This document shows positions 37,581 through 44,071 of a DNA stretch of 64,000 nt, in pieces. The notes beneath the pieces are model-generated. The model had not been told where the DNA came from and did no database searches. It saw only the letters and a list, made by a program, of their open reading frames with translations. The stretch comes from Chloroflexota bacterium. GTDB taxonomy: Bacteria; Chloroflexota; Dehalococcoidia; Lucifugimonadales; JADFKI01. Each line of letters begins with the position of its first letter. Position 1 is the first letter of the stretch. Location of the stretch: NCBI GenBank assembly GCA_009840355.1, contig VXNZ01000034.1, positions 1-64,000 on the forward strand, read 5' to 3'. The translations under genes were made by a program, and so were the position numbers.

Positions 37581-40355
37581 ATGACGACAGAACACGAACA
37601 TACGCTGAATGTCTGGACTGCCGAACTGCTGCGGGACATGCACGGACTTGACGCCAAGCAGGAGCGGAAGCAGGCAGACCGCAAGCGCATCGACATAGAA
37701 ATTCGTATCGGCCCCGTCAAGATTGCATTTGAAGCCGAGCAGGGACAGACAACTACCAAAAAGCGCGAAGCTATCAGCGACGCCGACAAGCGGCTCAAGC
37801 AGAAAAACGCCGACTGCGCCATCGCCGTCTGCTACCCCGACGGGATCTCCGAGAAGCAACAGATACCTGACAGTCGAATGCTCTGGACCATCCGCGCGCC
37901 CGGAAGCCAGATTCCATATAACGATGTAAAGTGGACGGAAGCCAATCTTGGCGAACTGGCGTCGGTCATACAGTTCGCGCCGATGCAGCTTGGCAACCCC
38001 GATTTGGCGGCGGCGGGCTTGTCCGCAAGCCTTGACAGGGCGGTTGGGCGGCTGAGCGACACCCAGATGCGTATGCTTGCTGAGGCACTTGACCTACCCG
38101 GCTGGGTGCGGAGTAGTGGGAAAATCAAGGCGAGCAACGCACCCAATGCGCGATATGACAGAGCCGCAAAGCGCGCGCTTCTGGTTGTAGCCACCGCCGT
38201 GATGTTCCACTCCCGTCTGGACGCCTACCGCGCCGAACTCAAGCCAAAGTACGACAACCGACAACCGGAGCGGACGCCTTTCAATGGCGAATGGCCTCCC
38301 ACCATGGCGCAGCACTGCGTCAAGCACGCGGACCCGATTGGCGCTTTCTACGACGCATGGGAACTCTGGCTTGCCGTGGACTACAAGCCCATATTCTCAA
38401 CCGCGCAGACCGCGCTCAACGGCTGTCCGCATGACTCCGCTTTCACCGCCGCGATACGCGAAGTTAGCGAAGCGGCGCTAGCTCTTACCCGCGACATCGC
38501 CGGCTTGCGCCACGACCTGCTCGGTCGCATCTTCCACACCGTTCTCGATACCGCCCGCTACGACGGCTCTTTCTACACTACGACCGCCGCCGCGACCCTC
38601 TTGGCGTCTCTCGCCATCACAAACGACATGTGCGACTGGAACGACATCGACGCCATATCCAAGCTGCGTATCACCGACCCCGCCTGCGGCACGGGAACGC
38701 TGCTGATGGCGGCTGCCGAGCGCATCCATGAACTCGCGCCTGCCGCGAGAGACGACGCCGAATTGGGGCAGGCGTTAATCGAGAATGTTCTTGCGGGCTA
38801 CGATGTCAACCTCACCGCAACGCACATGGCGGCAACCACGCTGGGCTTGCTCTCGCCCACCACGCGCTTTCAAAACATGAAAATCGGACGCGCATTCCTA
38901 GGCGTGGACGACGCGGGCAAAGCGCACCTCGGTTCGCTGGAGTTCCTTGATGCGCAACCGATGATGATGCCCTGGCCCGGCATGGCGCAATCCGTATCGC
39001 AGGTTGACGACGGCAGTGAAATGGCGCAGCCTGATCCGTCCGACATTGTGATAATGAACCCGCCCTTCACCCGCGACAGCCTACGACATGACCAGTTTAG
39101 CAGTGCTGACGAAGCGAAGCTTAAGGCGCGCGAAAAGAGATTGTTCGCCAACAAACCTGTTCATCTTTCCAGCAACGGCAACGCTTTCGTCATTCTAGCG
39201 GACTTCATGCGAAAGCGCGAAAATGGAACTATAGCGTCAATCCTACCACTGGTTACCGCTACAAATGCGTCATCTCTGGACATACGCAAGTTCTTGGGTA
39301 GGGACTACCACATAGACACACTGGTCGTATCGCACGACCCACAACGCATTTACTTCTCGGAAAACACCAGCATCGGCGAGATACTGTTGGTGTGCCGACT
39401 GCGGGAAGATGCCACCAAGCAAAAGCCGCCAACTCGCGTTGTAAATCTCGCAGTCAATCCCTCTACGCCCGCCGAAGCTATCGCGGTTGCGCGGGCAATT
39501 GAGGGTGGTATGCTGCAAAGTTCCGGCGCTGGCACTGTGCAGTATGCATCAGCGCAAGAAATTGCCGACGGAAACTGGGGCGCAGTGCAATTCCTTTCAG
39601 AATACTTGGTCAAAAACTTCGCTGCGTTAAGACGCAGCGAAGTTTTTGACAGCATTCCCTTGAGCAAGGTTGCTGAAATAGGACCTGACGGTAGGGGATT
39701 AAGAGGCGCATTCAGCCGCTCGAAAATGCCCAGCGCGGACGGCATGGTTGCGTTGTGGGACCACAACACTGATGCCACTCAATCAATGTCTGCTCAGTTT
39801 GACACACACGCAGTAGCTAAGCGTGGGAAAGAGAAGCAGGCGAGAAATCTTTGGAAGAAGCGCGGAAGGATGTTGTTGCCAACACGCATATTTCTGCCAA
39901 CAGTTAGGGTTATGTCCGTGCGATTGGAATCCCCAGCGCTGGGGTCCGCTTGGGTTCCTTGCAAGTCTACTGCGGATGATGTCAGCAAGCAAGACCAAAT
40001 TGAAAGGGCACTTTGTACATACCTTAATTCGTCGGTAGGCATATTGGCGGTATTGGGAGACCGTTCCAACAGAAAGCCGACCTATCCCAACTTGTCAATG
40101 GATGACCTCCGCAAGATTGTCGTCCCTGACTTCACCACGTTGGATGACGACGCACTAGAAACGCTGGTATCAGCTTATGACGCCCACGCCCACAAGACGC
40201 TGCTCCCCCTGCCACAGATGAACGCCTGCGATACGCGCCGCGCCCTGGACGCCGCGGTGTGCGCCGCCCTAGGCATAGATGCGGAGGACATCGCCACAAT
40301 CCGACGCAATCTAGCCGCCGAGCCGTCGGTTACGGGCAGGCGGTATGGACAATGA
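37581..40355 (+). CDS. Type IIG-like restriction-modification protein: nuclease-like N terminus fused to N6-adenine DNA methyltransferase
   Basis: A 924-residue fusion. Near residues 35-60, [21 protein letters not shown] fits a PD-(D/E)XK core with an E-x-E ending of the kind seen in BamHI. A helical linker follows. The methyltransferase has the AdoMet motif [13 protein letters not shown] (near 370) and the catalytic NPPF motif (near 490), the N6-adenine type. The C-terminal 300 residues look like a target-recognition region. One-chain restriction enzymes of this style cut and modify DNA and protect against phage. ATG 37581 is chosen; GGAGG lies 13 bases upstream, and the open frame begins at 37461. 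A 42-base perfect palindrome lies inside the gene at 39609. It is coupled to a small membrane protein. Confidence 0.78.
39609..39650. repeat. Perfect 19-base inverted repeat with 4-base loop inside the methyltransferase gene
   Basis: Left arm 39609-39627 (GTCAAAAACTTCGCTGCGT), loop TAAG 39628-39631, right arm 39632-39650. As RNA it forms a long hairpin with a GC-rich top and a 3' run of five U, like an intrinsic terminator, on either strand. It codes for [14 protein letters not shown], between the methyltransferase domain and the likely target-recognition region. Confidence 0.85.
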
Positions 40356-43564: not shown

Positions 43565-44071
43565 AAGGCACTTTGCTGGGAATAGTCTGCAGGCGTTCGG
43601 CGCGCCACAACACGGGCGACTTCTTGCGTGATAATTCACGTAGTTCAATGTGGCAAATGCGTGCGTCCAGTCTGAGTCAGGTTAGCACCGCGCCCGATTC
43701 TAGTCAATGTGCGCGCATGGCTGAATCGGGCTGTGCAAATGGCAGAACACGTACACCCTAGCCTACTCCCACCTTAACCTTCCTCTGACAAGGGCAAGTA
43801 TCTGCTTTCGTACCCGGTATGTCATTATCCCTAGGGGCGACCGGCCAGTCCCATCTACCGTCCTTGCGTTCCGCCCATTCAATCTCAACGTTAACATACC
43901 CCAATCAGGACGAAGGCAAGGGAGGAACTAATGAAAGCGGCGCGTTCACAGTGCGTTAATGCGCGGTGTGGCAGCGACAGTTCGCGCCACCCATTCTGCC
44001 CTATTTCGCTTGCAATCATCTCGCGCGCTATGCTATATTCACCGCGAGAAAGGGATTGCCATTGCCAAGAA
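43565..44071. other. Divergent region between isoprenoid genes and the nuo operon
   Basis: The 507 bases hold the nuo promoter (44010-44039). From 43931 an ATG with a good GGGAGG site opens a frame continuous with nuoA, which would add 47 residues not typical of NuoA; the promoter lies downstream of it. No RNA gene or other conserved frame is seen in 43565-43930. Confidence 0.5.
44010..44039 (+). promoter_or_regulatory. Promoter of the nuo operon, TTGCAA-N18-TATATT with extended -10
   Basis: TTGCAA lies at 44010-44015 and TATATT at 44034-44039, preceded by TGC, an extended -10 element. Transcription near 44046 would leave a leader of about 26 bases before nuoA at 44072. Confidence 0.6.

What the first reader, a model, noticed from the sequence alone, without database searches (positions are those of the whole stretch)
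39609..39650. 42-base perfect palindrome inside a restriction-modification gene
A 19-base perfect inverted repeat with a four-base loop is kept in frame inside the methyltransferase fusion, between the catalytic and likely recognition parts. In RNA it has the form of an intrinsic terminator. In DNA it could be a recombination point. Target-recognition swapping through inverted repeats is established for type I hsdS and BREX pglX genes, but not, to my knowledge, through such a short perfect hairpin here. It could cause premature termination and thus tune enzyme level.
Basis: partly seen in the sequence, partly recalled or inferred. Interest (0 to 1): 0.7.

Follow-up and report, generated by a model that had tools for sequence, protein, structure and literature searches.

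The report
Flippable DNA hairpin inside restriction-modification gene
A perfect 42-base DNA hairpin inside a bacterial restriction-modification gene was most likely made and kept perfect by DNA polymerase switching templates, and flipping its four-base tip turns a normal codon into a stop codon, a flip that a sister species appears to have undergone, so the gene could be switched off and on without any dedicated enzyme.

Summary
The palindrome is real (39609-39650: 19-bp arms, loop TAAG) and far beyond chance. It lies in a 924-aa type IIG-like nuclease/N6-adenine methyltransferase/TRD gene of a Chloroflexota (probably Dehalococcoidia) genome, at the entrance to the target-recognition domain. 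It is not an inserted element (orthologs without it align gap-free), its arms are not repeated elsewhere in the genome, and it is not a convincing terminator. In a congener (65% aa) the same codons hold an 18-bp hairpin: the outer 11 bp are identical, the inner 7 bp differ but still pair perfectly, and the loop is reverse-complemented (CTTA), placing an in-frame TAG in it. Flipping that loop back on paper removes the stop and restores a Leu found in all eight close orthologs compared. The ~230 codons after the stop are not decayed. Flipping the window's loop would create TAA at the same codon. This fits the known mutation 'template switching with arm homogenisation and spacer inversion'. I read the hairpin as a template-switch product that is also a potential recombinase-free ON/OFF switch. 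That it was selected as a phase-variation switch is not shown: stop-toggling is not enriched genome-wide, and no within-species variants could be examined.

The parts
37581..40352 (+). 924-aa type IIG-like restriction-modification fusion (N-terminal nuclease-like region, N6-adenine methyltransferase, C-terminal TRD)
   Evidence: PF02384 2.5e-08; PADLOC type I/II/IIG MTase hits; AF2 model and PDB fold matches CamA, M.BseCI, DrdV, BpuSI, MmeI, PglX
37581..37980 (+). N-terminal nuclease-like region (RIDIE...FEAEQGQ); nuclease activity inferred only
   Evidence: sequence pattern read by eye; whole-length alignment to DrdV (model 1-897)
38502..39602 (+). N6-adenine methyltransferase core, about residues 308-674 ([13 protein letters not shown])
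39609..39627 (+). left arm of hairpin (GTCAAAAACTTCGCTGCGT); the outer residues V677-N679 depart from the ortholog consensus, so probably the overwritten arm
39628..39631 (+). loop TAAG (part of codons L683 TTA and R684 AGA); its inversion gives TCT TAA, a stop at codon 684
39632..39650 (+). right arm of hairpin (ACGCAGCGAAGTTTTTGAC); conforms better to ortholog consensus, so probably the donor arm
39633..40289 (+). C-terminal target-recognition domain, about residues 685-903, lost from a product that stops in the loop
   Evidence: AF2 model and VIA-align ranges; no family name in NCBIfam

Best explanation
The palindrome is the footprint of replication template switching at a quasi-palindrome in the coding sequence, not an inserted element, terminator or recombinase site. 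In the common ancestor of the two congeners the left arm was probably overwritten with the reverse complement of the right arm, leaving an outer 11-bp inverted repeat (TCAAAAACTTC / GAAGTTTTTGA). Each lineage then extended it inward on its own. In the sister species (G002) one intermolecular switch suffices: it rewrote the left inner arm as the reverse complement of the right inner arm and inverted the loop, creating TAG at codon 684 and cutting the protein before its recognition domain (OFF). In the window the loop has the open orientation (ON), and the same flip would create TAA. Since loop inversion at perfect repeats is reversible, the hairpin behaves, at least potentially, as an enzyme-free ON/OFF switch of a single-gene restriction-modification system. 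Shown: the hairpins, the reverse-complemented loop, the stop, restoration of Leu683/Arg684 on flipping back, and an undecayed C-terminus after the stop. Inferred: the switching mechanism, order of events, reversibility in this organism, and any selective benefit.
For: Congener L009: TTC ACC TTG CCT TAG CAA GGT GAA GTT TTT GA against window TTC GCT GCG TTA AGA CGC AGC GAA GTT TTT GA, with arms perfect in both. The L009 loop CTTA is the exact reverse complement of TAAG (1 in 256 by chance for a random 4-mer). Flipping it back gives LVKNFTLLRQGEVFES with no stop; flipping the window gives LVKNFAAS*RSEVFDS. Leu683 is invariant in all 8 outgroup orthologs aligned here, whereas L009 as assembled reads Pro-stop. 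Direction of copying: left-arm residues depart from the family (mean BLOSUM62 -0.17 outer, -1.12 L009 inner) while right-arm residues conform (1.97-2.06, 1.75). Orthologs without a hairpin align gap-free across the site, so nothing was inserted. All 7 outer-arm codons are identical between the congeners against a 50% background at conserved residues (p = 0.0075). L009 residues after the stop are as similar to six outgroups as the window's (for example 0.513 vs 0.500, 0.594 vs 0.543), so OFF is recent or reversible. Perfect hairpins exceed shuffled expectation in this genome (arms of 12 or more: 8 vs 0 in 370 kb, one mononucleotide shuffle). The mechanism is documented: template switching homogenises arms and inverts short spacers in yeast coding genes, reversibly (PMC8604942), and creates hairpins and flips loops in RNA genes, bacteria included (PMC8794818).
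Against: Only two species carry it, so the flip is inferred between species at 65% aa identity, not seen within one; no reads or strain variants were available. An ordinary nonsense mutation in L009 is possible in principle, although it would not explain the reversed loop. Stop-toggling is not rare a priori: 6.5% of short in-gene hairpins, but about a third of all possible stop-free 4-nt loops in the window's frame and closing pair. In 834 kb of the genome only the window and one 13-bp/12-nt hairpin toggle, so no genome-wide selection is seen. The other homologs examined (about 130 loci, some overlapping) lack it.
Confidence: 0.68

Rival explanations
1. Selected contingency locus: the hairpin is maintained by selection as a recombinase-free phase-variation switch of the restriction-modification enzyme.
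For: Opposite loop states in two congeners, undecayed OFF allele, unusually conserved outer arms. Restriction-modification genes are common phase-variation targets. A homolog in another family (G017, L022) independently carries a 21-bp hairpin within about 12 codons of the homologous place, and its loop flip also gives an in-frame TAA.
Against: The L022 hairpin is absent from about 30 orthologs, lies in a hypervariable linker and is not at the homologous codons. Toggling is not enriched genome-wide, and a third of stop-free loops in this frame would toggle anyway. No within-species variation has been seen.
Confidence: 0.25
2. Selected RNA hairpin: an internal attenuator/terminator or mRNA stability element, with compensatory changes in the stem reflecting selection on structure.
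For: Very stable fold (z -6.9), A5/T5 tracts in both congeners, and inner stem pairs replaced on both sides between congeners.
Against: The hairpin sits inside translated coding sequence; no U-tract follows the full stem and the scan did not call a terminator. It does not predict a reverse-complemented loop or a nonsense codon in the loop. It is absent from all other orthologs, and one template switch explains the multi-base compensatory change.
Confidence: 0.08
3. Recombination site for swapping recognition domains, or a site-specific recombinase site, as in hsdS or pglX shufflons.
For: Position at the MTase/TRD boundary.
Against: No second exact copy of the arm core in the genome; 1-mismatch hits equal the reversed control. 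The outer palindrome is in 2 of 250 genomes of the order, one site each. Neighbouring genes read as SUF, nucleoside hydrolase and isoprenoid genes, with no hsdS or recombinase seen by eye.
Confidence: 0.03
4. Inserted palindromic repeat element (RPE- or REP-like) or assembly artefact.
For: Palindromic repeats are common in bacteria, and this genome has another repeated palindrome.
Against: Gap-free alignment to hairpin-less orthologs; no other copies; a related but non-identical hairpin in an independently assembled congener.
Confidence: 0.03

Closest known systems
Template-switch mutations at inverted repeats in coding genes (S. cerevisiae; PMC8604942)
   Same: Perfect in-frame inverted repeats with short spacers; arm homogenisation; whole-spacer inversion; in REG2 both together, as inferred for L009.
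   Different: Those changes were amino-acid replacements; orthologs with premature stops were excluded. Here the flip toggles a nonsense codon, in a bacterial restriction-modification gene.
Template switching creating and maintaining RNA hairpins (PMC8794818)
   Same: Multi-base compensatory changes and loop inversions from single events, including bacterial rRNA.
   Different: RNA genes with selected structure, not a protein-coding gene.
Coding palindromes in Nematomorpha mitochondrial genes (PMC6649704)
   Same: Perfect inverted repeats inside functional coding genes, probably kept perfect by arm conversion.
   Different: Many and much longer there; no ON/OFF loop flip described in the passages read.
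Intragenic invertons (Chanin et al. 2024, cited in PMC11868660)
   Same: Inversion inside a gene that can switch coding.
   Different: From my own knowledge: longer invertible segments, usually attributed to recombinases. Here only 4 nt would flip and no recombinase is implied.
Phase-variable restriction-modification genes (hsdS, pglX, repeat-tract type III/IIG)
   Same: Restriction-modification gene with potential heritable ON/OFF states.
   Different: No simple-sequence repeat, no second specificity cassette and no recombinase.

Membership tests
Template-switch (quasi-palindrome) mutation product | Perfect arms made by copying one arm into the other, without insertion | tested here: met
   Gap-free orthologs; right arm conforms and left arm departs from the family
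Template-switch (quasi-palindrome) mutation product | Spacer/loop inversion relative to a relative | tested here: met
   TAAG vs CTTA at the same codons in two congeners
Template-switch (quasi-palindrome) mutation product | Event seen between ancestor and descendant on a dense tree | not testable with these tools
   Only one congener with the hairpin; no strains or reads
Phase-variable (contingency) locus | Reversible ON/OFF allelic states within one population | not testable with these tools
   Opposite states seen only between species
Phase-variable (contingency) locus | OFF allele otherwise intact | tested here: met
   One TAG only; C-terminus not decayed
Recombinase-dependent inverton / specificity shufflon | Inverted repeats flanking an invertible segment, or a second copy elsewhere | tested here: not met
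   No second copy of the arm core; only a 4-nt spacer
Intrinsic terminator | GC-rich stem followed by a U-tract | tested here: not met
   T5 is inside the stem; not called by the scan
Type IIG restriction-modification enzyme | Nuclease, gamma-type N6-MTase and TRD in one chain | tested here: inconclusive
   MTase and TRD folds matched; DrdV aligned over 1-897 and BpuSI matched; nuclease domain not tested on its own
Inserted palindromic element (RPE/REP-like) | Multiple genomic copies and insertion relative to empty orthologs | tested here: not met
   Single copy, no length gain

The most novel reading that the evidence does not exclude
A phase-variation device with no recombinase and no repeat tract: a perfect intragenic hairpin whose 4-nt loop is flipped by replication template switching, turning a Leu-Arg codon pair into a stop and back, so that a restriction-modification enzyme is switched ON and OFF.
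Probability: 0.25. Interest if true: 0.82.

Novelty: new variant of a known kind. Interest (0 to 1): 0.56.

Why it matters
If loop flipping occurs within populations, it would be a very simple heritable switch: about 40 bases, no enzyme of its own, and able to arise in any gene by a single template switch. Read-based inverton searches that require longer invertible segments would miss it. It also offers a concrete case in which a known mutation process (spacer inversion) has a clear protein-level ON/OFF outcome in a defence gene. Even if it is only a mutational footprint, it is a clear bacterial coding example of template-switch arm homogenisation with loop inversion, and a caution against reading compensatory stem changes as proof of a selected RNA structure.

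Tried and rejected
Intrinsic terminator. Further arm copies or alternative TRDs. Rfam: only sub-threshold chance hits to a miRNA family. Insertion element: gap-free orthologs. Idea that the hairpin is a conserved feature of the whole family at this place: L022 (21-bp hairpin) looked like a second case, but about 30 of its orthologs lack it and it is about 12 codons off. Idea that in-frame stops of other homologs lie in hairpins: no. Idea that stop-toggling hairpins are enriched genome-wide: no. Literature searches for phase variation by hairpin-loop inversion found no such report in the held library, which is open-access only. PDB sequence search with the single protein found nothing; the profile found HsdM/MTase chains.

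Full report
OBSERVATION. The palindrome is exactly as described: arms 39609-39627 and 39632-39650, 19 bp, perfect, loop TAAG. No other hairpin in the window has arms longer than 10 bp, and the arm has no other copy in the window even with three mismatches. The 42-mer folds far better than shuffles as DNA (z -9.5), and its surroundings as RNA (z -6.9). It lies in frame in ORF 37581-40352 (924 aa; ATG preceded by GGAGG), with an N6_Mtase domain.

THE GENE. PADLOC and NCBIfam give only weak type I/II/IIG and PglX-like hits. A 16-sequence alignment gave a good AlphaFold model (pLDDT 83.7, pTM 0.86). Its best structural neighbours include CamA, M.BseCI, PglX, DrdV, MmeI and BpuSI. Type I M-type subunits mostly align up to residue about 674 and whole MTase-TRD enzymes up to about 903, so the hairpin (codons 677-690: last helix 674-684 and the following turn) is at the doorway to the recognition domain. 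A stop in the loop would leave residues 1-683, without the TRD. Close relatives in the named collection are Chloroflexota MAGs, several labelled Dehalococcoidia.

THE CONGENER. In genome G002 (same genus) the 65%-identical ortholog L009 has, at the same codons, TCAAAAACTTC-ACCTTGC-CTTA-GCAAGGT-GAAGTTTTTGA: an 18-bp perfect hairpin. Outer 11 bp: identical. Inner 7 bp: mostly different, yet complementary in each species. Loop: the reverse complement of the window's. That orientation puts TAG in frame at codon 684, the only stop in an otherwise open frame. Flipping the loop back on paper gives F-T-L-L-R-Q-G-E, matching the family pattern F-x-x-L-x-x-G-E and restoring Leu683, which is invariant in the eight outgroup orthologs; flipping the window's loop gives S-stop. 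The C-terminal ~230 residues of L009 after the stop are as close to six outgroups as are the window's, so the stop is recent or reversible.

ORIGIN. Hairpin-less orthologs at 52-65% identity align across the site without a gap, and those at 47-50% differ there by a few residues, so nothing was inserted. Compared with eight outgroups, left-arm residues (V677 K678 N679; T681 L682 in L009) are the odd ones and right-arm residues (E687, F689; Q685 G686 in L009) conform, so the right arm probably served as template for the left. In L009 a single intermolecular template switch, copying the reverse complement of loop plus right inner arm over left inner arm plus loop, gives the observed sequence. This event type (arm homogenisation with spacer inversion) is described for the yeast gene REG2, and pure spacer inversions at perfect repeats for nine more genes; the authors call such inversions reversible, and they excluded orthologs with premature stops (PMC8604942). 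PMC8794818 reports the same process creating and maintaining hairpins and flipping loops, in bacteria too.

IS IT A SWITCH? For: opposite states in two congeners, intact OFF allele, outer arms with 7/7 identical codons against a 50% background (p = 0.0075), and a gene class often phase-variable. Against: toggling is cheap. In-gene hairpins with 7-9-bp arms toggle in about 6.5% of cases, but for the window's frame and closing pair 61 of 182 stop-free loops would. Across 834 kb of this genome perfect hairpins with arms of 12 bp or more are common (roughly one per 40 kb, well above a shuffle), yet only the window's and one 13/12 hairpin toggle. A homolog in G017 (L022) has its own 21-bp hairpin nearby whose flip also gives TAA, but it is lineage-specific and not at homologous codons. 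No within-species data could be examined. I therefore rate template-switch origin as likely and a selected phase switch as possible (about 0.25).

ALTERNATIVES. Terminator: T5 is inside the stem, the scan is negative, and it does not explain the reversed loop. Shufflon or recombinase site: no second copy of the arm core. Inserted repeat or artefact: single copy, no length gain, related hairpin in an independent assembly.

NOVELTY. The mutation process is known. A hairpin-loop flip acting as ON/OFF switch of a restriction-modification gene was not found in the open-access library, which is not proof of absence. I file it as a new variant of a known kind.

Noticed in passing
L022:1380-1425 (G017 C1 about 2905997-2906042): A homologous MTase gene in another family carries a 21-bp perfect hairpin with a 4-nt loop whose inversion gives an in-frame TAA; absent from about 30 orthologs.
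   Followed up: yes
L115:11752-11789 (G000 C25): A 19-bp-arm perfect palindrome with no spacer: GAAAAGCCCTTTACATTTCGAAATGTAAAGGGCTTTTC.
   Followed up: no
L118:6573-6600, L201:2854-2881, L204:5049-5076; partial at window 43833-43848: Repeated palindrome GTAGGGGCGACCGGCCGGTCGCCCCTAC (one copy GACCGACCGG), a REP-like interspersed repeat; the window holds a half-site TAGGGGCGACCGGCC.
   Followed up: no
L079:2208-2246 (G198 C2): An ortholog is broken by a frameshift whose overlap contains a 14-bp/11-nt perfect palindrome.
   Followed up: partly
L025/L033 (G004 C5 about 570103-572770): A congener keeps only the two ends of the same gene as degenerate remnants with stops.
   Followed up: partly
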